The notes under the pieces: generated by a model
Databases searched by the model: none
Told to the model about the DNA's origin: nothing
Seen by the model: the letters and a program-made list of their open reading frames with translations, nothing else
Made by a program: the position numbers and the translations under genes
Source of the DNA: Paramacrobiotus metropolitanus
Taxonomy: Eukaryota; Tardigrada; Eutardigrada; Parachela; Macrobiotidae
Length of the DNA stretch: 64,000 nucleotides
Assembly (NCBI RefSeq): GCF_019649055.1
Contig: NW_026570306.1
Span: forward strand, 1-64,000
Direction: 5' to 3'
Shown: one piece after another, positions 27,417 through 63,821 of the stretch
Layout of the letters: each line of letters opens with the position of its first letter
Position numbering within the stretch: the first letter of the stretch is position 1

Positions 27417-27434
27417 TAACCACCGTGTCACCAC
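27417..27434 (-). promoter_or_regulatory. Copy of the recurrent 18-bp element
   Basis: Minus strand GTGGTGACACGGTGGTTA, one of about 17 matches to GTGGTGAYAYNNTGGYAA between 27 and 59.5 kb. It lies about 95 bp beyond the stop of the winged-helix gene. Confidence 0.5.
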
Positions 27435-27528
27435 ATGCAAGTAAACATAGGGAATTCAGCGCATGAGATAGAAATATAAGACTTATCATTATCAGCATCG
27501 TGCTTTAAAAGTTTGAGCGAATAAGGTT

Positions 27529-28813
27529 TTATTTTCCCAATTGTTTGGATATACTGAGATACTGGAGACAGGAGGGCAGCGATTTATTTTCGTGGCAGCC
27601 ATGGCGCTGAAGGTGTTCGGAGATTTTGGCAAATTGCTTTGAGCGGAAGCTGCACTTATTGCACTGGACCATTTTCCCTTTCACAATGCGGTGATGGTCA
27701 GCACTCAGAGTATGCAGAATTAGATGAGACTTTTTATTGGTAGAGTATCTGCAGGGCTCGCAATGGTGTTTGGCGTGACGCTGTTCCTTACGGCGGTTGT
27801 TTTGTGGAGAACGGAAGGTTGGTTCAATGTTTTGCTCCTTGTTGACAATGCTAGTTTGGGATGCACGTTTGCCCTTGGGTCGACCGCGTTTTCGTTTAAT
27901 GGGCGCAGAATCGACGACGGCAGCAGATAATGTATGACAAGCAAGCGGTTGCAGAGTGGCAAGAACAGCGTCGTCCGTCTTGGTGTGGATCTGGTTGGTA
28001 GCATTGTGCGAAGAGCAGTGGATGTAGCGCTGGGAAGGAGATAGCCGAAGGCAGTTTCTTTGTAGGAGTCTGTCCAAGGCGTGCAGAATTTCATCGTGCA
28101 AGTGGTCAGTTTGCACACTTAAAAGATAAAATTTGCAAATAAGCTCAAGCAAGATTAACCAGTTATCACATAGTTGTATTGACATTTTTAGTTTATCAAA
28201 ATTTCGTTAAAATCGATTGATTACCGCATAATGCTAATTTGAACCGTATTTGTATAAAGTGCTCTAAATAAATTGTCAAATGGCAATTATTCATATTCTA
28301 TACTAATGTAAGAATTTCGGATAGTTCTGACTTTATAAGGTTGATGGTGTAAATGTCGATCCGCGTAACTTACTTGTAGGAATACCGAATGTATCGTTCA
28401 GTCTCCATCAGGGATGATCCCACTGGGTCTCCTATTTCCCGGACAGCTGATTTTACTGCTCGCAGTACGCAACCCTTGATGTTTCCGTCGCAGATCACAA
28501 ACGTTCGCAAACTTCGCAAACTGTCCGGATCCTTGTAGCACTGGAGTCCTTCAGTGTATACAAGTAATAGCACGCCATTTGTTGTAGCTAAATCTAGCTC
28601 TGTCCGAATTAGGGAGTCATCGTGGATATTGTGATACATTCTAAGTGTCTGAACGATACGGTCAAAGCCAGGCCGCTGCTTTTGCGATTTTATACGCCGA
28701 ATAGCTTCCTTGAATACGTGCAACAGTGAACAAGATTCTGGATTCTGTGGTTCCTTAGATTTGTCGGAGTTTACAAGGAATATGTTTCCGTTTTGCAGCT
28801 CAGTGCTGTTCAT
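27529..28813 (-). CDS. Winged-helix (KAT6/SAMD1 type) + H15-like + AT-hook + C2H2 protein
   Basis: Two exons, 28813-28374 and 28117-27529, join in phase (donor GTAAGTT, acceptor TTTTAAG) to 342 residues. Residues about 30-92 match the SAMD1/KAT6 N-terminal winged helix (EAIRRIKSQKQRPGFDRIV ... GLQCYKDPD), known to bind unmethylated CpG DNA. Residues about 108-146 (VKSAVREI...GSSLMETERYI) resemble the H15 linker-histone fold that follows it in KAT6 proteins. Exon 2 adds an AT-hook (KRKRGRPKGKR, about 219) and two C2H2 fingers (CEPCRYSTNK...H; CNKCSFRSKQ...H). No acetyltransferase domain is present, so this is a stand-alone DNA/nucleosome-binding nuclear protein, probably a regulator. The exon join is inferred; the two parts could be separate genes. 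Confidence 0.65.
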
Positions 28814-29577
28814 CTTTGCATATAAAAGCTGCGGAAGTATAAGAAAAAGAATGAATTTCTTTAACAGAAAATAGGGAAATATATTTATTCAAAAAATGTG
28901 TCACGTATTACGAGCTTTGTGCAAAAATGTCTGTGTGCAGGCATATGTAACCAAGTTGTGACTTGAGCGTTCGGTCTTCGTCCTATTGGATCACAATGGG
29001 GCAGTACGTACTGTTGACTGTCATATAATTAATACGTACTGCGTGCTATGCATACTCAGCAAGGGTGCCTGGTGATGTGCACTCAGTGTGAACAAAGTTT
29101 TTGTAAATTCCCGGTCATTGTGCCAATCGGCGAATTAAGTGAATCTGCAGTGCGGATAATTCTTTTTTGAATTACTTTTATATTTCCTTCCTTGTTTAGA
29201 GGTAGCAAATGAAGGTCTGCTGTGGTGGCACATTTTGACATTTGGTTTGTATTTCATAAGAGAAAAGATTGGGGGTTTGTTTTTTTTTGATATACTAATA
29301 GCTTACATCTTTGGATTTGGAATAATGGATATCGCAGCGGGTGCGGAAATGTATAAGTTTAAGAAATATTCGACAGTAATATACGCTTCCGTGTTGAAGG
29401 TGGGGTGCTCCGCGTTCTGATCTAGCGCCAAAGTCGTGTACGCCAGGCAAGGAGATTCATTTGGGCGTTGTTTTATTGTACGATTTAAGGTAACTTACCT
29501 CATTGTATAGAGATTCCTGTTTTCAAAGGTTGATCGGTTTTAATTTAATCGTTGAGCATGTTTTTTCATTTGATAGC

Positions 29578-31353
29578 ATGAAGGCGGGAAAAAACAAATT
29601 CGGGAAAGAGGTTCTGGAGAAGCTGGAGCTGGTATGTGCAAGCATTTTTTTGAATTCATTTTTGTTGAATTTAGCTATTTTTTGCGTATTTTATTACAAA
29701 ATAAAGCCACTGTAAAATGCATGTAGGTTATCTACAAATTTATGCTTTCATTTAATGTTTGTAATTTCAGTTTTTCTACGCATATGTGCGGAGATTGAAT
29801 TTGCGTATTTTGATAAAGGGATAATAGGATAAGATTAAATGGTGCTTAATTATAGGTGAAATCAAAAAAGAATATGACTTTGGAAGTTGATCCTTTCACT
29901 ATTAATGCCAGAGACGTGTCCGAGTTTGTATTAAACGAAGTTCGTTTGACGGAGGAAGACGTGAAGGTATCAGCTTGTTCTAGAATATTAAAAAAGGATG
30001 TCCATAATTTTTTGTTACGCGAAATCTGTGGCATATAATTAAGATTATTGAATGCTTTCAGATGATTCTTATCGAGGGAAAACAAGCCGTTTCGGACAGC
30101 ACAATGATATCGGAGTTAATTAGTCGGGGCGCACTCAAGCAGGCACTGTTTGTTCATTCGAATAGTTATTTAATAATGACCTTCAAGTCTGAGACTCGCG
30201 ACTTTGAGTATAATATTCGGGTTTTGTGTCAATACTAGTTTTAGGGCACTGTAGTTTTGCGCTTTGTAAATTCTGTCCTTTTATTTGCAGATCGGACAGA
30301 CTTACTTTGTGGAATACCTTATTCTGCCCTTTCCAGAGCTGGTCAACTCGGAAGCAGACTTGCACATTATTTTGAACAGCCTTGTCGGAGAATTGTACGC
30401 GGAAGAAAGCGATGTTATTCCAGCGGGAAAACCGTCGGTCAACTGTACGATGATCTTGAGTTCCACCAGTCCAATTGAGCAGACAATTCAACCGGAGATT
30501 GCAACCATAGGGTTATCAGTAGTCAACAACCTGGACACCTCAAAGGGGATTTCGGCAGCCGGTAGCGACTCTGATCGTATCCGTTTGGGGATTGAAGTCG
30601 ATCTGAAAGTCGAGGCAAACGACGACTTTCGGTCAACAATTTGGATAGTACGGATTCTGCTCCCGTTCCCATCGTATCAACATTTTCAGTTGCCAGAAAG
30701 AAAGAACCAAAGAACAAGCGGATGAAGCTTTTGACACCTAGTATGGCAGTGGCGCCTGCTTGTATTGCCTCAGGAGGAAATTTTGTGGAACATCGTGGAA
30801 TGCTAACTTCCGCGCTGGCGCTTCCAAACGGACAATGCGGTGCAAGTGCGCAAAGTGAGAATGTCATCATGGCTTTTTATTGAGTCTGATTGTCCAATTA
30901 TGCTTTTATTTTATTAGACCGTTGTCTGAACATACCTGTTCCGCGTACATTGCCACCGATGAATAGTAAGGACGTCTTTATGGAAAACAGAGCCTTACAG
31001 TCAATGCCGCCGGCTAACAGTGGTCAGTGGGTTCTTACATCTCGAGAACTTGCGTTAATGTCGCAGTTGGTGGTCGGGCACCGCAAAGTCACAATAACTT
31101 TTGACGACGGCGACGGCAAGTCCAAAACAGTATGTGTAGACAATTGCTCATGATGATTAGATCTCATTGGCTCAATGTGTCCATTTGTCTGCATTTCGGG
31201 TCGATTAATGTTTCCTTTATTCGCGAAATGTCGGTTACTTTTTTCGGTTGTCTAAGTACTTTTGGATTGGCATCTTATTTTCAGTGCCGATTTCTCTTGC
31301 TGTATTCAATAACTTCATACAAGTGGCAATGTTCGTGGGTGTTTGCTGCTTGA
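29578..31353 (+). CDS. Multi-exon gene of unknown function
   Basis: Exons supported by splice sites and phase: 29578-29631 (MKAGKNKFGKEVLEKLEL), 29856-29966, 30062-30142 (followed by a GC donor), an exon from 30291 (IGQTYFVEYLILPFPELV), 30918-31129, and a last exon 31285-31353 ending in TGA. AATAAA follows at about 31410. The large central exon is a puzzle: the frame open from 30291 must change to another frame after about 30595 (RLSVNNLDSTDSAPVP) before a GTGAGA donor at 30855. Neither a good intron nor a single obvious indel explains it. The sequence includes a nearby near-duplicate, LSVVNNLDT / LSVNNLDST. Acidic, beta-rich segments (HRKVTITFDDGDGKSK) but no recognised domain. Confidence 0.55.
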
Positions 31354-32037
31354 GTAAATTTTCGGTTTTACTACATCAGATTACCTCTGTTTATGGTTTC
31401 TTGATTCTGTCAATAAAACCTTGAGAGAGAATGCGGAATGTCAAAAGCATCAGATGACACGGACGGTGAAGTAATATGGAACGCACAATATAGAAAGTTT
31501 TCAAAACATTCAAGGTTAAATTCAGAAACAATGCTCGTATTATTGTTACCGGATTTAAATTATTCGACATAGTTGAAAATGTGAAAACGCAAGCGATTAT
31601 GCACAGAATCAAAGACAAACATCAAGCGTTTGTTTGGCTTTATGCTTCCAGTTTTTGTCAATTATCTGCAGCTTTTAAGTGAGTGCTATCGCTCGATAAT
31701 GTTATGATTTATGACATGGACAAAACGGAAATAAGAAAGGGGTGTGGCTGATCTAAAGGAGCAATTGGCTATGTAGTAGTAATTGCTTATCGCTTGTTGC
31801 GCAATACACAGTCTGCGGACCTGAGATGCCATTCAGTTGTTAGTCTAACTGGGTTTGGAAACAAACAATTAGTTATGCGGGTTCATATTTGCTGGTATAC
31901 ATTGTGATTCTTTAACGTTTTTAACTGCTTTTCAAGTAGTTCTTGAATCTGTTTAAATTCTTCGTGGTACAGATTGGATTACTGCGCTTGCAAAGAGGAT
32001 TTGGTTTGGAAGAGAAAAAGAAGAGAGGTTCAGAAAG

Positions 32038-33198
32038 ATGATGCGACCGTTTAGCTATCGTGACGGAGATGGAGTTTTGCGTGAGTTAAAATGCTTTGGT
32101 GCCTTGCGTGCAAATTACAAATGATGGTTGTGATGAATGTTCTTCAAACTAACACATTTTTACAGGAACGGGACTAAATTCCGTGAAACAGCCACGTATT
32201 ATCGATATTTCGGAGAAGAATCTAAAGATCTCAGGATACACACAAATTCGTATTGTGTGTAAAAACACACTGTACGCGGTATAAATGCGATTTTAATCCA
32301 GATTTAATATAGCTGTAATGGGAGTACCTGTCGTTGCATTTGCAGCGAGTGTAAAGGCCAAAAACTGGACTCCCACCTGCACGAATCCATCAAGAAGGTG
32401 AGATATGTATTTGGTTTCAGCTTATTTTAAACGGACGCTTTTCGAAAGAAACAGTAATTGTACTCTCTGTTTTATTTTTTGTTTTTGCTTTTGGGATACA
32501 TGTCATCTATAAAGATTAGCATTGGTAATTTAACAGTTATTGTGTTTATTGACAAAACGAACTTCTTTACTGAAATTCTAAAATTAGCACCAAAAATAAT
32601 ACTATGCATTCTGCTGAATAACAGCTCCAATCTCGCCATCTGGTCACATTGTGCGATAATCGATTGACTGTGGAAGAGCTATCGGAGGACCTCAGAGAAC
32701 GTTATCAATTAGGAGGAGCGAAAATGGTATGTGGGCATCTTGTATAACAAATTCTTTAAAACGGATAAATTCGGTAATTTGTTTTTTTATCAGGAATTTA
32801 AGAAAAACGATGAAACACTGAAAAGTTCAGAGACTATTCAAGATTGGGTCAACTGTATGAAGTGGAAAAAGGTCAGTTTCTTTTATTGCATGGCAAGTTA
32901 ATTACTGCATATTTGATCTCTTAATAATTTACTTAAGATAAAAATATTCCATTATTTTGCGTGCTTTCGTGTTTTTTTGTTGATCAGCAAAAATTTTTTA
33001 AATTTAAAGGAACCCGGATTGTACGGAGAGGTCTGTTACAGTGTCGATTTGGAGATTTGCGCTGCTGGTGGACGCCCTCCTGTTATTCCAAGTTTTTCTG
33101 AACTGTTAGAAAGTGTGGCTGATAAAAACATCAAGCGCATAGTTGTGGAAATCGGTTTCGAAGACGGCACAAAAATGGTCATCACTGGACAGTTTTAG
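32038..33198 (+). CDS. Small multi-exon gene of unknown function
   Basis: Six exons join without a break: 32038-32080, 32166-32271, 32346-32397, 32625-32726, 32794-32871 and 33010-33198, giving 189 residues if the ATG pair at 32038/32041 is the start. The open frame reaches back to an acceptor at 31972, so a longer N-terminus is possible. Features: ECKGQKLDSHLHESIKK with Cys/His, a charged helical middle (LTVEELSEDLRERYQL), and a C-terminal strand-turn-strand IKRIVVEIGFEDGTKMVITG that resembles HRKVTITFDDGDGKSK in the gene just upstream. The pair may therefore be tandem relatives. No family recognised. Confidence 0.6.
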
Positions 33199-33820
33199 TA
33201 GACTTAAGGTACAATCAAATTTGGTTATCTAAAAAATTGGTTGTGTGTTGTCAAAATTTTAATCTGTTGGCCAACACTAAGAATCCGATAATTTTTATAC
33301 ATCGCAGTGCTTACAAATAGTCGTGTTGCTGATATAGTGTAATGCAAGTTTTCAAGATTCGGCAAATTATGGTTTTGGTTTCTGATCTTTGTTGTTTGCA
33401 GTGGATTCCAGTTACCCAAACGGAACATTTCTGTGCTGAAATTATTCTTCTAATCTTAATGGCCTTTTACTCTTTTTATTTGTATAAGATTGTAACACTT
33501 TATGTTACTCTGTATCATAAAAATAGATTTTTGGGTATGTTCGTGAACTAAAAATATTGATGGAAATGTGTTCAGCCTTCAGCGTTCTAATTCAAGGTTA
33601 TATTAATATGGCTTCCTAATTTTGCATTTTGGATGACAAGTATATTGCTTGCAACCGTTTTTATTTGTCATTTCATATAACGTGCTGTACGAAGTAAAAT
33701 TGATCCACTCTTATGTAATAGCCAGTAATGCTTCGTAGTCTTTGATTTCGAGTTACAAACAAAAAAATCGAAGCATAAACGGAGTTTTTCAGATTTATAT
33801 AAACAAATATAAAATAGCTT

Positions 33821-33875
33821 TTCACCGTCGTGTCACCACACAGTGATAGTAGGTGTTTCTCCTTCGTATCACCAC
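33821..33875 (-). promoter_or_regulatory. Two copies of the recurrent 18-bp element
   Basis: Minus-strand GTGGTGACACGACGGTGAA (33839-33821) and GTGGTGATACGAAGGAG (33875-33859), spaced 36 bp, about 400 bp upstream of the plus-strand gene at 34255. Confidence 0.5.
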
Positions 33876-34254
33876 TTGTGTTTCCGCTCTCGGGGAGCAC
33901 GTATGCTGGAGCCGAACTGAAATGAATTCAGTATCCTGGTTCTTAAATTTCAGTGGCTGTTTACCACCAGTTGCAGTATCTTCAAAGTTTTGATTGGTTA
34001 CACTTTCTTCAGCGTTTTCCCTTGTTGCCCAGGCAGTGCACAGTACGTGATTTTGGGCATTTTGCTGTAGAACTCAAATTTTCTAGAAACTGGATTTATT
34101 TTGGCGATATCATCGTTGAGTGATTTTTTGCGCTATCATTGTTGAATGTTGTTTTAGTGGCTGATCATTTGCTTTTTACGCAAATAAGGTTTATGTATGT
34201 AAAAAGGGACGGTTAAACACAATTCGTTGAATACTGGAAAACTGACATGATCCT

Positions 34255-35750
34255 ATGATGTCTGGGGCACGTAATCGAGCTCAACCGCAGTATGCTGATT
34301 TCCTTAGCGTCGAGGATTATTCGGAGGCCGTACGACAATATGAAGATGCCGTAAATCAGGTAAATGGTTTTCTTAATAGCGGTTATGAAGTGTAAAACTT
34401 TAAATGCCTTAATATATGTGCGGAATGTAGGCAAATGTTGGTAGCGGGTCAATAGCTGCCAAAGATTCTGGTACACGAAGATCCAACCAAGACAGCAGGA
34501 CGACATCTCGTCGTACGGGTGATGGAGGTCGTAACCACACAGCGACCGCAGCAGCGCCTGCAGTAGGAATTCGAGAAAACCCCTCGAAAAAAGCGATGAG
34601 AAGAGTGCAAACTGCTCATTTTTTTGTAATACTATATGGTTTGGGTTGTTATATAAGTTTTACCCGGGCTTTTGAACTGATATTACACCGTTTCAATTTT
34701 AAATAGGCTTCAACTGCAGTGCAAAACAGCAGAAACGGTCAAGTGGAGCAGTTGTCCGGACGTACAAGAGAACGAAGCGCTCAAATGCATCAGAGTTCTC
34801 TTGGAAAAATGTTTTTACTGCAGATTTAGTGAAATACTTCCGAATTTCTTTCTTTAATAATTGTAAGGATGTGGAAAAATTATTCAGCGGCCAATAAGCG
34901 GCAGCTAATTGGCTTTAAACCACGGAAGGCGGGTGTCCTTAAGTTGGATCGCGGCGATGAATCGTCCGATACCGAGTTATCGGAGAACTCAGAAGATGAC
35001 GAAGAGGATTACTGGTTTCGTAAAGCCAAGAAAAGGATCGAACATCGTAAAGATCCATTCGATAGTGACAGCGAAATTGTATGTCCCCAATTTTACTATG
35101 GCATAATTTTAAACCGGTTTGGTAAAACTGTAAAAATTACATTGCAGGAGCCGCAGAGTGAAGCTGCGTCACAGAGTGGAGATGGTGATGTCCATGTAGA
35201 TCCTATGTATGAAATATGTACAGACGGCTACTCAGCTGTTGAAATAAATGGTATTAAGTATCAAGCCGCGGTTTGGAAGCAGGAGCCGTATCTATTTGAA
35301 TTATCCAAAATCAATATGGGCGGCGTTCCAGTGAAGATGGCAAAACCCGGCGCTCCTGAATATAGTTTTCGGAAGTGGAAGGATGTGGAAAAGGAGGCCA
35401 GTGAAGCCGCCGCTGCAACAGATCGCCATGTGAAATCAGGAAAACCTTATTACGTGTGTCCTTATTGTTCGAAGAAATATGCGACCAAAAGGGAGGATCA
35501 GGCAAAAGGCAGCCTAAAGCGGCATGTTTACGGATCACCAGCGACTCCTACCTGTCGAAAGCATAACGTTTGTGCAAAATATTATGAGGTGGAAAAGCAC
35601 ACGGTCGATAATGATCTACCATGCCTGCGACAAATGATTCGGATTGAAAACGGCGTGAAGACGACAATTGACTACCTGCAGCGAAATTTCAAGCCCCATA
35701 AATTACCTGCCGCAAATCTCCGACGAAACAACATAAACCGGAGTTCGTAA
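34255..35750 (+). CDS. CPYC/RHVYGSPAT zinc-finger family protein, member 1
   Basis: Starts MMSGARNRAQPQYADFLS (34255 or 34258); exon 1 ends at a GTAAAT donor near 34360. Two short Ser/Arg/Gln-rich exons follow (34432-34600; 34708-34810) and a last exon from 34868 to the stop at 35750; the third join uses a weak donor. The C-terminal ~180 residues form a module shared with the genes at 56.0 and 58.1 kb: a strand-rich part (IKYQAAVWKQEPYLFEL), then VCPYCSKKY, LKRHVYGSPAT, CRKHNVC and a tail MIRIENGV...DYLQ. Spaced Cys/His (CPYC, RH, C...H..C) suggests a zinc-binding, possibly nucleic-acid-binding fold. An acidic stretch (SSDTELSENSEDDEEDYW) and basic patches precede it. I do not know this family. 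Confidence 0.7.
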
Positions 35751-36129
35751 TTGGTAGAGACAATATGGAAATATTAAATTTGCTTGAAAACACTTTTTCG
35801 TTCTATTGGTTTTAACTTTCATGAAAATGGTTTGCATTAACTTAAATCTCTCTTTTTGCAGACATGTCCGTATTTTCTTGGATATGTCTGATGCACTAAA
35901 ATTTTATGATTTTAAACTGAACTTTTGTTCCATATACAATAAGATTAGCAACAGTTGATTATAATGTAATTTCTGCATTTTTGAAGAAGTGTGCGTTTGA
36001 TAACACTGAATTAGTATGCAAACAAGAGTTGGAAGCATGTTGGTTAACGTACAATACTTTGTAGACTAGTAAAAGTTAAATTAAAATCTACTCAAGTCAA
36101 ATCGCAACATGCTTTGGTTCTTTGAGGGG

Positions 36130-36385
36130 CATGAGTAACTTCGGTTAGCCGACGTGGGATGTACGGTCATGTAATTTTTAATACGGTGATGTGTAGTGAC
36201 ATAGTGGTGACACGTGGTAACATGTGCGTTTTCTGAAAATTGGACAAAGTACTGTATGGTGCCGTCATTTTATTTTGTACATCCGATCAGTACTAAATAA
36301 CATTATACAGCCACTAGGATTGCGGTTTATTCAGTCGCGTTGATATCTCACTGGCAATGGTATCGAAATTAAATTGAAGTAGGTT
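36130..36385 (+). repeat. Duplicated promoter-like module, copy 1
   Basis: Contains CCGACGTGGGATGTACGG, GTGGTGACACGTGGTAA (36204-36220), a GGACAAAGTACTGTATGGTG segment, CCGATCA and GAAGTAGGTTAAGAAG. The same ordered blocks recur at 36985-37190 and part of them at 41960-42090. No open gene follows here. Confidence 0.65.
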
Positions 36386-36984
36386 AAGAAGCTCATTTAA
36401 ACATTTTTTTCGTTGCATCGAACTCTTCTGGTTAATTATTACTACTTGACTAGAGCGCTAAAACTAAAAGCAGTAAAAGCATAATAACCTGCCTTATGAT
36501 ATTAGGCCTATATATGCACTGGACGCCAGTAATCTAAATTTACATAATATAGCTATGCTGATGGAAATAAAACAGCAAAAATATAAGAAAGGTCACGGAG
36601 CTATTTATTCTGCATGTATTCGCACACTAAATGGCAAAAATGGCTGGACATACCTCGGTAAGATGGACGACCCATGCTCGCTACTGACTAGCAGCTCACC
36701 TTAACATTAACGGGAAATGTGTTTAAGTCTATACTTGTGGAAGGACTAAGATCGAAGTACCAGAAAATTTTTTATATAGACAACCCGAATGCACTGTAGA
36801 GGGACAATTAAATGATTTCAACATTCATATAACAAAACTTATATCGGCTTATCCCTATTAGTCTCTTTATCGGCTTATGTGCGGTTGGGTATTGGACGAC
36901 AAGTTAAATGTTGTAGTGGAAACCTATGCCGATCTCTTCGAAAATGGTTTATGATCGTGAGTCTTATGAGCATGGGTCTGCGCG

Positions 36985-37190
36985 GATAACCGACGTGGGA
37001 ATGTCCGCTTAAACAGTTTGTATTGCGATCATGAGTGGTGATACGTGGTAACATGTGCGTAATTTTGTTCTATACAGCCGATCAATTAATTAATAACATA
37101 AATGCTATAAATATGTCTGGTTATTCAGTTGCGTTTTACTTTTAGTAACGATGTTATCCTAAATAACTGAAGTAGGTTGAGAAGTTATCA
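36985..37190 (+). repeat. Duplicated promoter-like module, copy 2
   Basis: CCGACGTGGGAATGTCCG, GTGGTGATACGTGGTAA (37035-37051), TATACAGCCGATCA, GGTTATTCAGTTGCG and GAAGTAGGTTGAGAAG in the same order as copy 1, 850 bp away. Confidence 0.65.
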
Positions 37191-39983: not shown

Positions 39984-40176
39984 TCTAGGTTTAACACAGC
40001 CAAAGAACTCAAACCAAGACAAAGAGTCTTCTAATCTCGAATCTCAAAGAGTCTGGAAGGCTTTTTATAAAATCGATGTCCAACCAAAAGCGATATCAAA
40101 ATGCAACAAAACGGATTACTGCAGAAAACCATCTTATGAAAAATTAAGTAAACTGTCAATGGCTAAATTGACATCA

Positions 40177-40190
40177 GTGGTGATATGCTA
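40177..40190 (+). promoter_or_regulatory. Partial copy of the recurrent element
   Basis: GTGGTGATATGCTA, about 195 bp upstream of the SET gene start, opposite strand to the gene. Weak 3' half. Confidence 0.3.
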
Positions 40191-41968: not shown

Positions 41969-41985
41969 GTGGAGACATGTGGTAA
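41969..41985 (+). promoter_or_regulatory. Recurrent element in the promoter of the 42.25-kb gene
   Basis: GTGGAGACATGTGGTAA, 269 bp upstream of the ATG and in the gene's orientation. The following GGACAAAGTACAGTGTGATG segment matches the 36.2-kb module. Confidence 0.55.
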
Positions 41986-50100: not shown

Positions 50101-50540
50101 TCAGCTCCGGTCTCCGAAGCCGGCGATTCAAATTGTTCAGCTTTTTCTCCTAAATCACTTTCCCGTCCATCTTCTTCATCAAATTCATAAATGTCTTTAC
50201 CATAACTAGTTCCATCTTTTTGCGAAAAATCAAATGATTGCACTTCTGTTGCGGCAGAGAACACCGAAGATGCCACCGAAGTTTCCCGTCGTGACCCATG
50301 AGACTGCACCACATTTCGATAGCTCGCATCAGTTTCGGCACCTGAATTTACCGTCGCTACAACCCCCGACGTCAATTCTGTCCAATTCTGGATCTTGTGT
50401 GCCGGCAACCAGTGTCCGCATTCCGTTTTCGTACATTTAACCGCATCCAATCCGGTAGCAAAGGTATAGTTTCCTTCCACAGGAAACTCACATGGACACA
50501 ATCTGCATCGCGCTATTTTGAATTCTTGATCGTCTCCCAT
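47141..50540 (-). CDS. HECT-type E3 ubiquitin ligase-like protein
   Basis: About eight minus-strand exons, start MGDDQEFKIARCRLCPCEFP at 50540, stop at 47141, roughly 930 residues. Exons 1-5 join cleanly (introns near 49628-49689, 49331-49390, 49173-49227, 48960-49125); the next intron (about 48240-48362) seems to need a GC donor. The N-terminus has a CRLCPC...C...CGH Zn-type cluster. The middle is long, acidic and Ser-rich. The C-terminal ~330 residues follow HECT order: DAQGPWIEGNSIIGNEFRMM (N-lobe entry), FKAFGTYIFHMFIHHGPWPE, then C-lobe LCIYITGTIHL...IPTAETCFAIITFARLY with the catalytic Cys in TCF. In HECT enzymes this Cys accepts ubiquitin from an E2 before transfer. The N-lobe is divergent and substrate is unknown. 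Confidence 0.75.
49045..49062 (-). promoter_or_regulatory. Recurrent element inside a HECT-gene intron
   Basis: GTGGTGACGTTGTGGTAA on the minus strand, the gene's own orientation, in the fourth intron. It is nearly identical to the copy at 53227. Confidence 0.5.
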
Positions 50541-51051
50541 AATTACGTCGCTGATCAAAATATAACAAGTTAAATTACGAAGGAACAAATAATATAATGA
50601 AAAACAAACAAAACATGAAAAAAAGACTTTTTACATTACAGCCGATCAGTTGGCTGTAATCAGACTAATTTCTAAGAAACCTGACCAACGGACAGCCGGT
50701 CAGATGATACTGTCCACAAATAATTTTTCTGAACTTGTTGAACGAATATGAACAATTGGAACAATGTAATCTCATCGCGGGAAAACTTCATTCCCCTTGC
50801 GATGCCCAAACTACAGTCCCGGACCCCAAAACTGATGCTCGCTTCGCAGCTGCAGGCGTACATTTAGCTCAGCACTGCAAGCTGCACGCGGTGCACGACT
50901 ACGGACCGAGTACCGACTAACAGGAACTTCAGCTACACTATTGAAGTACCTGTATTGCTTTTTTAGGTATCCTTTTCCATATCTACTTTGAAAGCATCGT
51001 TTCTGTTTATTTATATCTGTTTTTCTTATCTTACATTCCTCAACCAGTATT

Positions 51052-52674
51052 ATGCCACCCATTAGGGGAACCTTTAATGGATCTTACTCGCCAGCGATTG
51101 TCAGTTACAGCGGAGTTGATGATTTATCACCCATCAGCTACATTCCCATCGCCCAAGCGGGATACTCAGGTGGATTCGGGTTCTTAGGTAGACTTTATTT
51201 TGTGTGTTTATCCGATAAGTAGAATGCTTGAATTAATATTTCAATCGTTTAGACAGTCGACCAGCAGTATTTGTAAGAAAAACAGCGAAGCGCAAATGAA
51301 TTGAAATGCACTGATATCGTGCTTTTACTAATAATTTTACCGGATTTTTTGCGTCTTTTTTTAATAGGTGGGCCAACCGTGTGGATCTTGTGTGTGCTCA
51401 TTTTGTTCATTTGTTTTTCCGCCATCATGCTTATACATTTGGGATTCAAAATGAGGCAGGTTAAGCTTATCCTTTCAAAAAACCTTTCTGGAGAGGGAAA
51501 GCCTGAATCCTTGAATTTCGCCACCGTAAGCCATAGTTCCAATGTTTTCCCGTTCAGCTGTCTTTCTGTTGTACTGCTCATGACAATGTATTTGTTTTGC
51601 AGAGTACCATCACGACCACACCACAATCCAATGTGCTTTACCTACGAGCAAGAACTGATCTGCTGTATCTTACTTATTCTCGTACGCGCCATCATTTTGA
51701 TGATATTTTTCCGGAATTTATCCGAAAAGTTAGCCAGGGCCACTTTGGAATCGTTTCTGAAATATCAGTGTGTCTGCCTAACGATCGAAAGCCAACAAGA
51801 GTTGCTTTGAAAACTTGTCAAGGTAAGACCGTTAATCGTTAGATACATACTTCTTCAGTTACAGGCTATTAAACTCCATAAAATTTCCAGTGTGTGTCAT
51901 ACTGAACCGTTCTGTTTCCAGATTTGTCGAGCGAGACAAAAGTCTGCAGTCTACAGCACAAAATTGCGACGCTAAAAGCGATTCCCGAGCATCCAAACAT
52001 AATTTCACTCATTGGGTATGTTGATGATAGCATTGTGCCCTATTTCCTGATGGAACTTGCTGTCGGTGATTTGAAAACTATTGTATCTGCGATTTCGCCA
52101 GCGATCTTTGAATTCCAAGATGATTGGCCAGTATTCGTACAGTATGCGATTGATATTGCCACTGGTATGGATTATCTCCAACACCTGAATATAGTTCACC
52201 GCGATTTAGCAGCCAGAAACGTGCTGTTGTCTCACAATGGAAACATAAAGATTTCCGATTTCGGCCACTCCAGAAAAATTTCCGGCAAATATTACATAGG
52301 AAGCGAAGGAGAAGAACTGGCTTGGCGCTGGCGCGCTCCTGAAACCCTGGAAAGCCGTTTGTTTTCCGCATTTTCTGACACATGGGCATTTGGTATTGTG
52401 ATGTGGGAAATCTTTACTTATGGTCAATTGCCTTTTTGCGATGTGGAATCTCCAACTGTTCTGTTTGATCGCCTCGTGCATGGACAATTCCCGCCGCAAC
52501 CAGCATTTTGCTCGGACAGACTGTGCGTATTTTCAGCATACGTTTGTAAGTTATAATAACTACGAGTTATTTTTTAACAGATACAACGTCATGCGATCTT
52601 CGTGGCATCTCATTCCGGATCAGCGCCTCAGCTTTAGAAAAGCAATCACATTGCTGCAGTCAGCAAAAATCTGA
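51052..52674 (+). CDS. Single-pass membrane tyrosine kinase with minimal ectodomain
   Basis: Five exons join in phase (51052-51187, 51368-51525, 51603-51822, 51922-52522, 52581-52674) to 402 residues. About 46 residues precede one membrane segment (WILCVLILFICFSAIMLIHL, about 50-70); there is no cleavable signal peptide, so the segment would be a signal anchor or a leader exon is missing. Kinase domain from about 135: VSQGHFGIV loop, Lys168 in VALK, HRDLAARN (Asp266), DFG 284-286, WRWRAPE, and a PxxR tail WHLIPDQRLSF. The HRDLAARN loop marks it as tyrosine-type. Odd points: the first loop glycine is Ser142, and the alpha-C Glu appears to be Lys185, so activity may be reduced. Ligand and pathway are unknown. 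Confidence 0.88.
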
Positions 52675-53226
52675 TGAAGAATGTTCAGCGATGATAGTTG
52701 TTCAGCGACGGAGTTTACTTGCAGTGATTGTTATAGATCTTCAGTTATTTCCCTCTCGTGTATTAACCAAAAATTTTTAACCTAAATTTTCTGTTGACTT
52801 TCTTCTTCCTATATAAACCGAGCAGTCGACGATGAATACGCGAAACCATTTTTTTACTTGACTTGATGCAGCGAGTTGGTTTAATTGACAGCAAACTGTA
52901 ACTGTACTGAACTTGTATTATAATATACTCATCCAACTAAAAATTTGCACGAATGAAAAATATGACTCTGAACGTGTTTCTCTTTTAACAGTTCTGAATG
53001 TAAAATTATTTGTAGTCAGCGCCTCAAATGTAACCTGCTCCCCCAATGTTAGGAAAACTTACCGTTCAAGACCGAACTGTAACATTATGTCCTAATATTT
53101 ACGGAAACTTGATTGTACGCATTTCTTGTCTCCATTGCAAAATTCACAAAATAGAAGTCTGAAGCAGAGATTTTAGCTAAATTTAAACGCGAAGCATAGG
53201 TGTATATGGATCCATAAAATTATAAC

Positions 53227-53244
53227 GTGATGACATTGTGGTAA
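53227..53244 (+). promoter_or_regulatory. Recurrent element upstream of the integrase gene
   Basis: GTGATGACATTGTGGTAA, 313 bp before the ATG at 53557, same orientation as the gene. Confidence 0.5.
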
Positions 53245-53556
53245 AACAATCAATTTCTAATTTTAATATTAATGAGAAAAGATTAACGTTCCAAAATCTG
53301 TTTACAGCAAAGCTAACAAATTAGCAGTGTTTTAGCATGCATTTCATCCTTTTAGTTGTTCATACAAAATAAAGCCTATCCGGTTTGCAATATCACGTAA
53401 CTCAGTAGGCTTGCCGTTGCCGACTAAAAACTTAAATTTCATTGGGTTTGGCATCAGACGGTCAAATGATTCGAATCATAATTTTGTTTTCTTTTCAAGA
53501 TCTTTAAAAATTAGTGAATATTACTTACATGTTTTCCTTATTCATATGCTTGAGCC

Positions 53557-55204
53557 ATGGAAAATTTCACGGCAGACGTTGCACATTTTACGAATCATGC
53601 TGTATCTGTAATGCGGCGCATTGATCGTTTGATTTCGACAAATTCTACGGAATATGATGCTCTAGACGCATCTTTTGTGGAGCTGGATTATATGAAAAGG
53701 TAAAAGCCTTCGATTTCCTACAAAGCCTTTGATTATATCTGCGTTTTTTAGGTTCACAGCTAATGCAATTGAAAACGTGGCACAGGAATTTGTTGATCAG
53801 CTAGGGTCCCTTTATGATGCCCTAACAAATCAGATGTCCAACCTTGCGAGGATCAACCACGTCAACGAATTAGGAGATGACAACGTATTCCAGCACAGTG
53901 ATTCAAGAAAAAGAAGGAAGAAAGATTGTGGTTTCTTGTGAAATTTTAACGATTTTACGGGAAGAAGGGTTCACGATCCCGCAGATTTCAAAGTTTTTAG
54001 GCATTTCAACTCGAACAACAGATCGCCGATTACAGGAGCACAATTTGACAAACATGGTCAGAAATAAGTACTTTACTATTAGTGAAAAATATACGTAGTG
54101 CGCCGAAAATTTCCTTTGTAGTACGCTGAACTGACGGACGAGGAGACGGACAACATCACAAGAGAAATTTTAACGGAATTCCCACGCTCTGGATATCGGT
54201 TTGTTCAAGCGCGCTTTCAAGTGGCTGGATTCGTAATCCAACGACGACGCATTCGATCTAGCATGGCTCGTGTGGATCCGTTTGGCATTGCCCACCGGTT
54301 TTTCCGCTTTATTCCACGTCGCCGATATTGTGTAGCTGAACCAAACGCTTTATGGCACATGGACGGAAATCATAAGCTGGTGAGATGGGGATTTTATGTT
54401 CATGGAATTATCGATGGTTTTACGAGACTTGTTGTTTCCTTAATTTGCGAAACTAATAACTGCTCCACAACCGTGCTTAAAGCCTTTCTCCAAGCCGCCG
54501 CTTTACACGGCATCCCTTCCCGAATGCGAAGTGACAAAGGCGGTAAGAAAGGCGGTATTATGAAGAATTACCACACTGTATATTCAGTGTAATGGCTTCC
54601 TGTATTTTCTACAGGTGAAAATGTGTTGGTTGGGCGCTGTATGGAGACTCTGATGGGTGAAGGTAGAGGAAGCTTTATCACTGGAAAATCCGTGCACAAT
54701 CAACGAATTGAGCGGCTTTGGGTGGACCTCAGGGTACTAGCGCTGGAAAACTTTAGAGCAACCTTCTATTTTATGGAGAACAATGGGATACTAGATTTAG
54801 ATAATGAATTACACATACTAGCTTTACACCTAGTTTATCTCCCCCGCATTCAAGCCAAACTGAACGATTTTCTGGCAATGTATAACAATCATAAATTGAG
54901 AACGGAACGCTCTCGGACCCCGCGGCAGGTGTTTATGCAAGGATTATTGGAAAACAAGCTACAAGGCATTCCACCGCAAAAAGTCATACGTGATGTCGGT
55001 GCACGAAATGGAGAAACCTGCAGAGAGTTTTTGCTCAGGGAAGCGGCCGGAATAAACGTTACTGATATTCGCGTGAGATATTCTGCGCAGATCGAGCATG
55101 TGATGCAAAACGTCAACCTTTTCCTTGTAGATGGAACTGATGGAATAGACTGCTACGTTAACGTCGTGCAGCACCTTTTTCATTTTGAGCATGCACTGAT
55201 TTGA
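53557..55204 (+). CDS. DDE integrase-core protein (eukaryotic IS3/integrase-like)
   Basis: Exons: 53557-53699 (MENFTADVAHFTNHAVSVMR), 53752 to about 54056, 54122-54542, 54615-55204. After a helical N-terminus comes a helix-turn-helix (ILREEGFTIPQISKFLGIST), then the integrase core with catalytic triad D (LWHMDGNHKL), D (MRSDKGG|GEN across the last intron) and E (HNQRIERLW), and the C-terminal LPRIQAKLNDFLAMYNNHKL. These are hallmarks of the widespread intron-bearing eukaryotic integrase-core proteins related to IS3-type transposases. A frame change in exon 2 (about 53876-53930, purine-rich AGAAAAAGAAGGAAG) is unexplained: a frameshift or a missed splice. No terminal repeats were found around it, so it may be domesticated. 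Confidence 0.8.
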
Positions 55205-55331
55205 CATTTGAAATGCCGTTATGTGGTGTAGATTGGTGTTTTTCATAAAACTTCTTGATGTCCTAACGTGTTTTCTGTTTGTAATATTTATTGCTGCTCT
55301 GTGACCATTACCGTAAATAAGCACGTGAATA

Positions 55332-55348
55332 GTGGTGACATGTGGGGA
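55332..55348 (+). promoter_or_regulatory. Recurrent element copy
   Basis: GTGGTGACATGTGGGGA, 128 bp after the integrase stop. Confidence 0.45.
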
Positions 55349-55594
55349 AAAAAATTAAACCACGAAATACATAAATTACTTTGCGTTGCAGTAAATTTAA
55401 TATACAACTGCGTTTTCTTTAGCTACACGATTGTAAATTTTTATATTATGTGCAATGAAAGCACATTCCAAAAAAATACCAAAACAAAAAATCTTAACTT
55501 TTTTAAATTGCTGCATTAATTAAAACAGCTGTAGCCCTCTTTCGAACTTTCAGCTGAGCAACCCTCTACTGACCAAGAGTCGTTGTTGCAGTCT

Positions 55595-55815
55595 ATAAAA
55601 CCAATTCGATTCAGACAGCCCGGGTCAATTTCGCAGTTACTACCCACAAAATTCCAGCCACATGAAGTGTAGTTCCTTTAACTGCCTTCTGTCGGAGTCG
55701 GTGTGAACGGCATTATAACGCCATCCATAATTACAATATTATGCTGTAGAGAAAAAATACACAATCTGCTGTACTAATCGGCTTTCTTTATTTACCTCGA
55801 TTTTAGCATATTCGT
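55595..55815 (-). pseudogene. Partial duplicate of the SET gene pre-SET exon
   Basis: On the minus strand it reads like the 38.25-38.6 kb exon boundary and following coding part (MDG.IMPFTPT, then a broken GCN...GSNCEID.GC.NRI), but indels break the frame. It is a truncated segmental copy, 17 kb from its source. Confidence 0.6.
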
Positions 55816-56009
55816 TTTCCAACGACAAAGCTTATAAGGAGCTTCAAATCATAAAATCCTAAAACAGCCAATTCGATCAAGAAGATAACAACAAACAAAT
55901 GCATCAACTTATACACGTGTTTCCATTATAGGGTGCCAAATAAGAACTCCAGCAAATTCGGGTCGAGAAAAATTCTCAAATAAGAAAAATTATCAAAACA
56001 ATATCTGAC

Positions 56010-57442
56010 TTATTCTGATTTAGGTTTGAATGCTTTTGTCTTGGGATACTCCACGCGAGTAATCAAACCGCATTCCTTTTTGATTGGCAACAGCTTCGGT
56101 GCAGTTTGGTTTTTATAAGCGCCATCTTTTGCAAATTCTTTACAAATTTGTCTCCCAATCTTGCCCTCTTTTTCGGGTGCGTCTCCAGATAGATGTCGAA
56201 CGACCCCATGCACCGTCGTAAAACTTTTCTCTTTCCCCGCTTCATAGCAAAATGGACATAAAAAGGTGGTCTTCTTTTTTATGGTTCCGTTTTCAACTTC
56301 CTCTGGTTTTTGGCCAAAAACCGGATAACTGACATTTAAGTTTTGGCAAGCCCTTGCAGGAACTTCATCCGGCATCGTCACTTTGCCCGACTCAAAAAGG
56401 TATGGCTCAGGCAAAACAAAACCTGACCGATAGATTTTGCATCCAATTTTGACAAATCTCGATCCACCGGACGAAACCTTTTGCAATCCGTTGTTTGTTT
56501 CAAGGTGATGCACTAAAAGTCCGGATTCCCGATCAATCTCCTCCTTCACGCAACCCTTACAAAAGACAACAGGAAAGTCAGCTGGGTTGTCCACTGTTAG
56601 AATTTCATACAGCTCCACGCAGTTTCGCTACATTCTTTCACTTTATATATTTACAAATTTTCTATTAAACTACATACTTTAAACATTTCCGCACATATCT
56701 CTAAAGCAGTTGCGGAATCTTCCATCTCAAGAACTTCTTTACTATGAACCGACACCTGGAATAGATCAACAAATCATCAAGTTTTAAACACACGTTCTTA
56801 CATTTATCAGAAACTAAAAAAAAACTTTGTAGTCACCATTTCTTTTATTTTGTGATGGTCATGCCGTAAAGCCCACCTTCGCAATGAGCGATTTTCGAGG
56901 CATTCGTCACGATTAACATCCGGTATAGCTTCACCCCGATACTCCGAAACAGCTTTATAAAACAGATCCTCGTTCGAAAATTCGTACAATCGTGGCCAGG
57001 CGCATCCACGGAATCGCTCCAGCTGTTTCTTGTAAGCGAAGATTCCCAAAAAGTTATTCCGTTTAGGCAGTGCCAATAAGTTGTTGTTGCTGTCAACCTA
57101 ATATTGCGATTCATTTGACCATAATGCGCTATTAGAAAATTTTTAAGGTTTCCGAAATGAGACCGTAAAAACTATTACCTGCTCTGCTCTGGTTGACTCA
57201 AAATAAGTAGTTTATAAAGGCCGCCCAGACTAGGATCGCAGAATTATTTCGTATCCGTAACCATCATCATTATAAACGCCAGGGTCCGCTGGAATCGGTT
57301 CTCCAATAAACTGAGATACTGCCGCGTAAAACGATGCGTCCGAATCAGAAAATCTGTAACACGGAAACAGTTCTTGACGTAGGCATACCAAATAGGTAAC
57401 AAATGACTGGAAATCATTAAAATTTTCTCTTGTTAAAATCAT
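56010..57442 (-). CDS. CPYC-type zinc-finger family, member 2 (P1), with an in-frame TAG
   Basis: Minus-strand exons: about 57442-57190, about 57080-56835, about 56757-56690, and 56618-56010. The first two each carry one copy of a short repeat domain (FSDSDASFYAAVSQFIGEPI; FSNEDLFYKAVSEYRGEAIP). The last exon holds the strand-rich part (EPYLFESGKV) and the C-terminal zinc module (FLCPFCYEAG ... VVRHLSGDAP ... ICKEF), in which the VYGSPAT core has changed. In exon 1 the codon aligned with Trp of the neighbouring gene (LRKWSGR) is TAG at 57230-57232 (LRS-stop-SGR), so either a shorter splice is used or the gene is disabled. The recurrent element occurs twice upstream. A tandem relative lies 0.6 kb away. 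Confidence 0.6.
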
Positions 57443-57590
57443 TGGATGCTGGACTTTTATCGCGAACTAAGATTAATTCGAAGCACAAAAGCACACACAT
57501 TGCTTACTGCATCACTTGATTGTTTCAAGCCATCGCGCTGTTATTTAGGAAGTAAACAACTGGCACACTGTACGCATCCAGATTCAGTTT

Positions 57591-57608
57591 TTGCCACCAT
57601 ATCACCAC
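57591..57608 (-). promoter_or_regulatory. Recurrent element upstream of P1
   Basis: GTGGTGATATGGTGGCAA, about 150 bp upstream of the P1 ATG in the gene's orientation. Confidence 0.6.
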
Positions 57609-57665
57609 AAGCATGCGTCTGCTACTTAATATGAACAAGGAAATTTTTGACATAAAATTCCGTTT

Positions 57666-57683
57666 TTGCCACCATGTCACCGC
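57666..57683 (-). promoter_or_regulatory. Second recurrent element upstream of P1
   Basis: GCGGTGACATGGTGGCAA, 75 bp from the first; the flanking TTTTTGCCACCAT...CGCAAGC is also shared, so the pair is a local tandem duplication. Confidence 0.55.
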
Positions 57684-58092
57684 AAGCAGGGCGCCAAAGA
57701 GAACTGCAGTACAAATCATCAAAGAATTCTGTCTGGTTCTATCGACATCAAAGTGTTTAAGAAAGTCAAACAGAAAGGCATATCAAATTTTATAAAGACA
57801 GTTTCATTTTCCTTGAAGGAATAAACTCCACATAAAATAAACACCGCGATCAGTTATATCACATTCAGCACGCCGCTTTTTCATAAGGCACACTCATACT
57901 CTAGTTTAATCAGTCACCCAAAAATCAACAGTATGACTCTACATTCTATCACAAAGCTTATAACAATTTTTTCAATACAAAAAAGACTATGCAATCCAAA
58001 TCTGTTATGCTTTCAGACAAAGACTTTTCATAAGCCATCTAAAACAAACAACAAAACTCAAGAATTCCCATTCTCAACAATAATAACAACCA

Positions 58093-59440
58093 CTACTTTG
58101 TGCGGACGTGAAGTTGCAGGTAATCTGTTTCCATAACTACACCATTTTCCAGTCGAATCCCACGCCGGGAAGCAACAGGCCACCAACTGGAAGTACACTT
58201 TTCCATCTCTTTGTACTCAGGACACGGATGTCTTTCCCGGTCTTTCGCCGTAGCTGGACTACCGTAAACGTGCCGTCCTAATCGCCAGTTCGTTTTTGAT
58301 TCGGTATGGTCTACGATTTTAGTAGAACAATAAGGGCAGACAAGAGTTATCTTTTTTCGGCTTCCGTTTTTCGGTTCATTTCCCATCTCCAGATAATCGA
58401 AAATAGGATACTTTGTTTCTTTTTCCCCAGGACCAGCAAAGCTCAGACCTTCAGCACCTTCCGGGACTAACACTTCGAACAAGCACAGCTGAGGCTTAAT
58501 AACACCAGCTTGATAAATGCCGTCAGTTCTCTTTAGTAATCCAAATCCTTGAGTAGAAATTGAGATTTTTCCAGTTCTGGCCTCATATGTGTCCAGAAAT
58601 CGCTTTTCTAAATACTCCGCACCCGATGGAAAACATGACATGAATAAACTTATGATACAAACATGATATAGATCAACATAAAGATTTTTTAGTAAATAAA
58701 ATGAACATTATGCTCCTAAAGTCAATTCTTCACCACCAAGGGATGTTTTCCTACCGAACATAATTCCTTTGATATTTCAACTGGTGCTTCTGCAGCTGGT
58801 TTCTTCGTTTCCAGTTGGCAAAAGTGTTTAGGATCAGCTAGAGACCAAAGCGCTAACCGCGTGGAACGTAAATCTGAGGAGTCTGAATCAGTTAAATCCG
58901 GGATGTCTTCCGCTATAAAAGTCGAAACAGCATCCAAAACGTCTTTCTCCGATGAATATCTTTCAGCGCATGGCCATTCATTCAATCGGTATTTTTCTAC
59001 TGCCTGCTTAAACGCGTATCTCGACACAAACTCCTCCCGCGACGGCACTGCCGTTTGAAGTTCTGGATTCAAGCTTGCATTAGGTTCAACCTATATCACA
59101 AAAAATTCCCAAATATAAGCAGTCAAACGTAACCGTAACTCATACTGCGAAAACTTCAGTGAACTGGCCTCAAGGTTTACAATCACCATCGATTTCAGAC
59201 TTACCGTTTTTCTAATAAACGAAGAAGCTTTCATGGAACCATAGCCCATCCGACCGGACCATTTTCTGAGCAAACTATCATAATCACTACCATCCCACGT
59301 TTCCTGAGGGTCCTCCGGGATGGGTTCTCCCAAGTAGTTTGATACTTCCCGATAAAACAATGACTCCGTAGGATAATCTGCAAAACGGGAAACGGCCTTC
59401 CCCTATGCAGTTCTAAGGCTGCTTTGAACTGTGGAAACGA
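58093..59440 (-). CDS. CPYC/RHVYGSPAT zinc-finger family, member 3 (P2)
   Basis: Tandem relative of P1. Exons: 5' part to about 59215 (LFYREVSNYLGEPIPEDPQE ... LRKWSGRMGYG, donor GTAAGT); 59090 to about 58752 (YAFKQAVEKYRLNEWPCAER ... STFIAEDIPDL); and a last exon to 58093. The last exon carries the full module: PQLCLFEVLV, VCPYCSTKIV, RLGRHVYGSPAT, RERHPCPEY, GIRLENGVVMETDYLQ. The 5' end is unclear: sequence similar to the P1 start (DYQSFPQFKAALELHRGR) is present but in another frame from LFYREV, so a frameshift or an intron ending TTTTGCAG near 59385 must intervene. It shares with member 1 the strongest match in the zinc module. Role unknown; DNA/RNA binding is a guess from the Cys/His pattern. 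Confidence 0.65.
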
Positions 59441-59456
59441 TTGATAATCCCTCTAC

Positions 59457-59474
59457 GTGGGATTGTATCACCAC
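59457..59474 (-). promoter_or_regulatory. Recurrent element upstream of P2
   Basis: GTGGTGATACAATCCCAC, gene orientation, directly before the first coding-like sequence of P2. Confidence 0.5.
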
Positions 59475-63815: not shown

Positions 63816-63821
63816 TGTATG

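What the first reader, a model, noticed from the sequence alone, without database searches (positions are those of the whole stretch)
27417..59474. An 18-bp element recurs about 17 times across one gene cluster
GTGGTGAYAYNNTGGYAA (either strand) occurs at 27417, 33821, 33859, 36204, 37035, 41969, 44731, 44932, 45817, 45997, 49045, 53227, 55332, 57591, 57666 and 59457, with a partial copy at 40177. I found no good match in the first 27 kb or after 59.5 kb. Copies at 41969, 53227, 57591, 57666 and 59457 lie within about 330 bp upstream of a gene in its orientation. It could be the site of a cluster-specific transcription factor, or the tip of a short repeat that spread locally.
Basis: seen in the sequence. 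Interest (0 to 1): 0.8.

Follow-up and report, generated by a model that had tools for sequence, protein, structure and literature searches.

The report
Repeated motif inside a giant transposon
The repeated 18-letter DNA motif is real, but the "gene cluster" that holds it is a single 33,000-letter jumping-gene element loaded with extra genes, so the motif is probably part of that element's own control system rather than the host's.

Summary
The motif is real and far beyond chance: 11 matches at up to 2 mismatches in the window, 0.18 expected. All 13 window copies of its 10-bp core lie between 27.4 and 59.5 kb.

The "gene cluster" is one insertion, 26660-59829 (33,170 bp). It has 173-bp terminal inverted repeats (94% identical; no third copy found), TATGG..CCATA ends and a 6-bp duplication (TAGGGG/TAGCGG, 5 of 6). 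It interrupts a high-copy repeat whose unbroken junction occurs 36 times exactly. A PF24764 transposase, the ends and the duplication place it in the IS3EU transposon superfamily. Relatives of 14-17 kb in the same genome share the ends, 6-bp duplications and a HECT gene. This member is about twice their size and adds SET, tyrosine-kinase, winged-helix and zinc-finger-like genes.

No relative examined has a good motif copy. Of 99 looser matches elsewhere, 40 were inspected and 37 belong to four repeat families. Most copies share nothing beyond the core, and all 16 strong sites avoid recognised exons; enrichment upstream of gene starts is modest and fragile. Best reading: element-specific operator sites, function untested.

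The parts
26660..59829 (.). IS3EU-type transposon, 33,170 bp, single copy; holds all the motif copies of the window
   Evidence: TIRs, TSD and ends, empty site, transposase and HECT genes
26660..26831 (+). left terminal inverted repeat, starts TATGGAGAGCCG
   Evidence: 94% identical to the right arm over 173 columns; only these two copies found in the genome
59657..59829 (-). right terminal inverted repeat
26654..26659 (+). target-site duplication, left copy TAGGGG
59830..59835 (+). target-site duplication, right copy TAGCGG (5 of 6)
27417..27434 (-). motif, two-base spacing
33822..33839 (-). motif, two-base spacing, 2 mismatches
33858..33875 (-). motif, weaker (16.0 bits, 3 mismatches)
36193..36210 (+). 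motif overlapping the next (19.1 bits)
36204..36220 (+). motif, one-base spacing
37035..37051 (+). motif, one-base spacing; weak convergent partner ending at 37244
41969..41985 (+). motif, one-base spacing, between the divergent SET gene and the gene at 42254
44731..44747 (+). motif, one-base spacing, convergent pair with 44932
45817..45833 (+). motif, one-base spacing, convergent pair with 45997
49045..49062 (-). motif, in an apparent intron of the HECT gene
53227..53244 (+). motif, about 330 bp upstream of the transposase start read by eye
55332..55348 (+). motif, one-base spacing, weaker second half
57591..57608 (-). motif, exact match, upstream of zinc-finger-like gene 2
57666..57683 (-). 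motif, tandem neighbour of 57591
59457..59474 (-). first half of the motif only, upstream of zinc-finger-like gene 3
53557..55204 (+). transposase gene (PF24764 integrase core, D-56-D-34-E in the modelled splice form), several exons; start read by eye
47141..50540 (-). HECT-domain gene, collinear with the HECT gene of the 16-kb relative
27532..28814 (-). gene with SAMD1-type winged-helix domain (PF21524); extent read by eye
34869..35750 (+). zinc-finger-like gene 1 (shared EPYLFE stretch; Pfam C2H2 hit only at E 0.039)
56010..57466 (-). zinc-finger-like gene 2; extent read by eye
58096..59402 (-). zinc-finger-like gene 3; extent read by eye
37895..41722 (-). gene with AWS and SET domains; start read by eye
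51052..52672 (+). tyrosine-kinase gene (PF07714); extent read by eye

Best explanation
The window carries one giant transposon of the IS3EU superfamily, 26660-59829. It inserted into the end of a high-copy repeat, with a 6-bp target duplication. This part is shown, at about 0.95. The 18-bp motif belongs to this element; no other place in the genome was found to hold a cluster of it. Two half-sites in direct repeat, GTGGTGAYAY and TGGYAA, start 11-12 bp apart, about one helical turn. A dimer or a multi-finger protein could read both from one face of the helix (inference). The most likely function is a set of operator sites for a DNA-binding protein that the element itself encodes. Candidates are the three related zinc-finger-like genes or the winged-helix gene. 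Through these sites the protein would coordinate transcription of the transposase and the cargo genes, or keep the element quiet or active as a unit. The binding, the reader protein and the effect are all inferred. The confidence is for the whole statement including function.
For: Element: TIRs 94% over 173 columns, no third copy found in the genome. TATGG..CCATA ends and TAGGGG/TAGCGG duplication. The uninterrupted target junction occurs 36 times exactly, one of them the far end of the same host repeat, with 0 in the reversed control. PF24764 core and HECT gene shared with 14-17-kb relatives that have the same type of ends and exact 6-bp duplications at three loci: GACTGA, ATGAGC and CTGAAA. 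HECT clusters within 12 kb of a transposase cluster: 20 of 21, this element included. Motif: 13 of 13 window cores inside; density about 750 times the rest of the genome. Of 99 looser matches outside the window 40 were inspected: 29 are one coding repeat, 8 fall in three further small families, 3 are single. Flanks mostly unrelated. None of 16 strong sites touches a recognised exon (29% of the element in the model, 39% with frames read by eye). 7 of 19 sites in the 10.8% of the element upstream of approximate gene starts.
Against: Upstream enrichment weakens to P 0.16 with an alternative start for one gene, half-sites dropped and neighbours collapsed. Four of the best copies lie in a roughly 3-kb stretch (43.7-47.1 kb) without a recognised gene. 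Four of ten genes (winged-helix, the 29578 gene, HECT, kinase) have no copy upstream, five if gene 1 starts at 34869. Among the 14 trained sites one-base spacing sits on + (6 of 7) and two-base spacing on - (7 of 7; Fisher P 0.005), which a plain binding site does not predict. No relative examined carries a good copy (C28 has two weak hits of 13 bits), so conservation cannot be shown. Unbiased word counts do not single the motif out, or barely. 59 of the 99 looser matches elsewhere were not inspected.
Confidence: 0.5

Rival explanations
1. The copies are the ends of a tiny internal mobile or repeat unit of about 200 bp with unlike ends: a + end GTGGTGACATNTGGTAA and a - end GTGGTGATATNNTGGCAA. 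It multiplied inside the transposon; single copies are leftover ends.
For: Convergent pairs 44731/44949 (219 bp) and 45817/46014 (198 bp) and a weaker 37035/37244 (210 bp, 13.6 bits against a 99% null of 11.3). Strand-spacing association P 0.005. Duplicated stretches 36204/37035 and 57591/57666, with 41969 sharing a flank with 36204.
Against: Inner sequences of the two good pairs show no clear similarity: score 14, where random 150-bp pairs reach 12.5 at 95% and 17-19 at most. No target duplication seen at them by eye. Of the 14 trained sites only these two pairs and 37035 have a partner above the 99% null. Flanks mostly unrelated.
Confidence: 0.25
2. Replication, insulation or anti-silencing sites: many copies spread along the element recruit a host chromatin factor that keeps the whole 33 kb in one state, as clustered insulator sites do in some retrotransposons (analogy recalled).
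For: Spread over nearly the whole length, both strands, outside recognised exons, including gene-free stretches.
Against: A host factor with so long a site should have other sites in the host genome; 37 of 40 looser matches inspected fall in four repeat families. Modest promoter bias points to transcription.
Confidence: 0.15
3. A host transcription factor site co-regulating an ordinary host gene cluster.
For: Some sites lie just upstream of genes.
Against: The cluster is a transposon insertion. The flanking gene array, 13-26 kb and from 64 kb, has no copy of the core. Elsewhere the genome searches list only scattered matches.
Confidence: 0.05
4. Chance or base composition in a GC-poor stretch.
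For: In an unbiased word count the motif does not top AT-rich words and stays below its null maxima (17 against 18-22); in the two-word test it is only just above (7 against 5-6).
Against: 11 against 0.18 expected with dinucleotides kept; at 10 bits, 20 first-order Markov controls give 0-5 hits where the element gives 20.
Confidence: 0.02

Closest known systems
IS3EU/GingerRoot transposon superfamily (PMC10045372, PMC12730594)
   Same: TA..TA ends (TATGG..CCATA), 6-bp target duplication (5 of 6 here), TIRs over 30 bp, DDE transposase with an integrase-type core, passenger genes including a kinase in fungal members
   Different: 33 kb with about ten genes; HECT gene as regular partner (no held paper contains both IS3EU and HECT); an internal dispersed 18-bp motif
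Styx of Zymoseptoria (PMC10853768, passages)
   Same: IS3EU-like transposase, 6-bp duplication, extra co-opted coding sequences
   Different: about 7.9 kb with four coding sequences, in a fungus; no comparable motif in the passages seen
14-17-kb integrase+HECT elements of the same genome (C4, C2, C3, C28)
   Same: type of ends, 6-bp duplications, transposase, HECT gene
   Different: half the size; HECT at most 32% identical; no good motif copy
Polinton/Maverick
   Same: integrase, TIRs, 6-bp duplication, tens of kb
   Different: no polymerase B or capsid family among 24 element ORFs or exons scanned; TA ends; genes with introns
Subterminal transposase-binding repeats of Ac/Ds, En/Spm and P elements (recalled)
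   Same: many copies of a short site within one transposon
   Different: those crowd the ends (recalled); here copies run along the whole element

Membership tests
IS3EU/GingerRoot | TA..TA termini, TAYGG..CCRTA | tested here: met
   TATGGAGAGCCG...CGGCTCTCCATA; definition in PMC10045372 section 10 and a PMC12730594 passage
IS3EU/GingerRoot | 6-bp target-site duplication | tested here: met
   TAGGGG/TAGCGG, one mismatch; exact at relatives C2, C3 and C28; C4 5 of 6
IS3EU/GingerRoot | TIRs longer than 30 bp | tested here: met
   172-173 bp at 94%; stated for fungal TET-bearing IS3EU in PMC12730594
IS3EU/GingerRoot | DDE transposase grouping with IS3EU transposases in a tree | not testable with these tools
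   no Repbase transposases held; PF24764 hit and D-56-D-34-E spacing are consistent only
IS3EU/GingerRoot | no HHCC domain before the core | tested here: inconclusive
   two relatives show weak HTH hits before the core; the window N-terminus was not scanned spliced
Polinton/Maverick | protein-primed DNA polymerase B, capsid, ATPase, protease | tested here: not met
   none among 24 element ORFs or exons scanned against Pfam; not every small exon was scanned
Host transcription-factor regulon | sites elsewhere in the host genome, not explained by repeats | tested here: not met
   37 of 40 inspected of 99 looser outside matches are in repeat families

The most novel reading that the evidence does not exclude
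A eukaryotic transposon that has become a small self-governing gene island. A 33-kb IS3EU element carries its own chromatin modifier, kinase, HECT protein and several candidate DNA-binding proteins. It also carries its own private operator sequence, repeated 16 times, which ties these genes into one regulon that travels with it, as a phage or conjugative element does.
Probability: 0.3. Interest if true: 0.8.

Novelty: new variant of a known kind. Interest (0 to 1): 0.55.

Why it matters
IS3EU transposons are a minor superfamily; the one with a stated size in the passages I saw is about 8 kb. Here is a 33-kb member with precise ends, target duplication and empty sites, and a transposase-HECT pair that recurs through the genome. 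If its repeated motif is an operator set, it is a testable case of a eukaryotic DNA transposon evolving its own transcriptional circuit, and it would explain how a large cargo can stay expressed as a unit.

Tried and rejected
Inversion breakpoints as the source of the inverted repeats: rejected after the empty site, the target duplication and the relatives with the same kind of ends. A TA duplication was my first reading (note) and is wrong. A snRNA or other RNA gene in the arms: no Rfam match in 26.0-60.4 kb up to E 5 except a mir-87 hit far below its threshold; folding of the arm is modest on one strand and ordinary on the other (z -2.6 and -0.4). The outward extension of the repeat I now read as the host repeat's own terminal repeat. 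A host-wide motif, suggested by 107 against 41 control hits (100 places listed, 8 in the window): 40 of the 99 outside hits were fetched, most from the commonest strings; 29 are one coding repeat, 3+3+2 are three further families, 3 are single; 59 were not inspected. Motif conservation at five loci sharing the start of zinc-finger-like gene 1: these share only a stretch of at most about 400 bp with the element; the best motif hit there is one of 16.5 bits with three-base spacing, L041:6159. A GACATTTGGT word in the 16-kb element does not exceed its null and is not the same site. Isolated exact matches at C47 and C71 (L003, L004): no homology to the element found. My guesses of organism (notes) were never tested and are not claimed. 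The home-made gene model fused some neighbouring genes and missed others; seven of ten starts were read by eye.
Full report
OBSERVATION. With up to two mismatches the window has 11 matches, against a mean of 0.18 in 100 dinucleotide-preserving shuffles; no shuffle reached 11. The 10-bp first half, GTGGTGAYAY, occurs 13 times in the window, all inside 27.4-59.5 kb. A weight matrix built on 14 sites finds 16 sites of 16 bits or more within 26660-59829 and none in the other 30.8 kb of the window. In 157 kb of other loci it finds 4 such sites, all in loci fetched because a motif match was known there. The matrix is circular for its 14 training sites. With the gap free from 0 to 3 the genome has 11 exact matches, 6 here, against 2 in the reversed control.

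GENOME-WIDE. The exact pattern occurs 5 times in 169.8 Mb, 3 here. With one mismatch there are 55, of which 7 here, and 28 in the reversed control, a density about 750 times higher inside the element. A looser form, GTGGTGAYAYN{1,2}TGG, gives 107 (8 here) against 41 in the control, which could have meant a host-wide motif. I fetched 40 of the 99 outside hits, most of them from the commonest letter strings. Twenty-nine are one coding repeat in which the letters fall by chance, 8 belong to three further small families, and 3 are single. I read the excess as repeats; 59 were not inspected. These searches score only the best candidates, so counts are lower bounds.

WHAT THE CLUSTER IS. The motif zone is bracketed by an inverted repeat. 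Aligned, the arms are 26660-26831 and 59657-59829, 94% identical over 173 columns, and the genome search finds only these two copies. The right arm abuts a different, high-copy repeat. The left flank ends in GGCACATAGGGG and the right flank begins TAGCGGTCCTCC. The joined form GGCACATAGGGGTCCTCCAAATT occurs 36 times exactly and 58 times with up to two mismatches, with 0 in the reversed control. One of the 36 is the far end of the same host repeat, at 63945. The 33,170 bp between are therefore an insertion, with a TAGGGG/TAGCGG duplication (5 of 6) and TATGG..CCATA ends. The DNA around it holds a tandem array of related genes on both sides that has no motif core.

WHICH KIND OF ELEMENT. The element encodes a PF24764 integrase core with D-56-D-34-E spacing in a modelled splice form. 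The same family gives 55 hits, in 29 clusters, in the genome. Copies at C4, C2 and C121 belong to one family, about 99% identical in the parts compared. I saw both ends at C4 (16.1 kb) and C2 (16.7 kb, with an extra piece): 437-bp TIRs at 97%, ends TATGGAATTCC, duplication exact at C2, GACTGA, and 5 of 6 at C4. Two more, at C3 (14.5 kb) and C28 (16.5 kb), have TATGG ends and exact duplications ATGAGC and CTGAAA. The window's HECT gene is collinear with the one in the 16-kb element. HECT hits form 21 clusters, the window's included; 20 lie within 12 kb of an integrase cluster, and 20 of the 29 integrase clusters have a HECT partner. The 12-kb limit was set after seeing the element size. The window HECT is at most 32% identical to the others, so this is a remote member.

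LITERATURE. PMC10045372 (abstract and sections 3, 10 and 11) says complete IS3EU families always have TA..TA termini and usually 6-bp duplications. PMC12730594 (passages) gives TAYGG..CCRTA ends and reports kinase and TET genes in fungal members. PMC10853768 (passages) describes Styx, about 7.9 kb. In PMC6431247 the word IS3EU does not occur (passages). A search for IS3EU with HECT found 0 papers in the held library. Searches, on giant transposons or terminal inverted repeats with integrase and HECT, found 0 and 1 paper. That one, and what searches listed beyond the papers above, I saw only as listings. Most subscription papers, and Repbase, are not held, so absence from print is not shown.

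CARGO. Beyond transposase and HECT the element has AWS (E 2e-4, just under its cut-off) plus SET, a tyrosine kinase, a SAMD1-type winged helix, three related genes with an EPYLFE stretch that look zinc-finger-like by eye (Pfam C2H2 only at E 0.039), of which two also share a repeated upstream domain, and two genes without a family hit. Genes have short introns. In all 24 element ORFs or exons were scanned against Pfam; no polymerase B or capsid family appeared.

WHAT THE MOTIF DOES. Flanks of 70 bp were compared for 17 sites. Four of 134 upstream pairs and 6 of 134 downstream pairs exceed the 99% null, against about 1.3 expected for each. Above the largest null score (13.5) are five pairs: 36204/37035 on both sides (counted once), 36204/41969, 36204/49045, 37035/45817 and 45817/57666. 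36204 and 37035 share a 27-bp stretch, and 57591 and 57666 are a 32-bp tandem pair. So most copies share only the core. None of the 16 strong sites touches a recognised exon; exons cover 29% of the element in the model and 39% with frames read by eye. 40951, a weak copy, lies in such a frame. Upstream windows of 450 bp from ten approximate starts cover 10.8% of the element and hold 7 of 19 sites (P 0.003). With an alternative start for one gene, half-sites dropped and close sites merged, it is 3 of 13 (P 0.16). I call this suggestive. Seven of the ten starts were read by eye. The two half-sites start 11 or 12 bp apart in direct repeat, which fits a protein reading one face of the helix (inference). 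No relative examined has a good copy: no core in seven 10-kb pieces around other integrases, no full half-site pair in the 16-kb element (no hit of 12 bits), and at C3 and C28 none of 16 bits, though C28 has two of 13. So the reader protein, if element-encoded, is probably among the genes private to this element (inference).

AGAINST MY READING. Among the 14 trained sites one-base spacing is on the + strand in 6 of 7 and two-base spacing on the - strand in 7 of 7 (P 0.005; sites not all independent). Two convergent pairs of about 200 bp, and a third weak one, hint at an internal repeat unit with unlike ends, although the inner sequences show no clear similarity. Four good copies lie in a stretch without a recognised gene, and four of ten genes, five with the alternative start, have no copy upstream. 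An unbiased 10-mer count does not rank the motif above its null, and a two-word test does so only barely. The strength of the observation rests on the gapped pattern and its confinement.

VERDICT. Observation partly confirmed: the excess and confinement hold, the coordinates and consensus need correction. The setting is a giant IS3EU transposon (about 0.95).

Noticed in passing
59830-63967: High-copy repeat with inverted ends carrying arrays of a 26-bp unit; its end is the insertion target of the 33-kb element.
   Followed up: partly
13000-26300 and L001:600-8500: Tandem array of related genes (SMYD-like by eye, family not scanned) on both sides of the insertion.
   Followed up: partly
55574-55835 and 38436-38692: An 82%-identical second copy of a SET-gene stretch inside the same element.
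   Followed up: no
34869-35252: The 5' part of zinc-finger-like gene 1 is about 70% identical to a stretch found at five other loci, as if a repeat had been recruited as an exon.
   Followed up: partly
genome-wide: HECT and PF24764 transposase genes lie within 12 kb of each other in 20 of 21 HECT clusters; the HECT gene may be a core part of this IS3EU group.
   Followed up: partly
44731-46014: Two convergent motif pairs, 219 and 198 bp across, in a stretch without a recognised gene.
   Followed up: partly
L007 and L008: Integrase copies with an open 436-aa frame at C86:257749 and C158:198217; 2.9 kb shared at 89%; no HECT hit listed near them.
   Followed up: no
11607-11798: 42-bp tandem repeat, 4.5 copies.
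   Followed up: no
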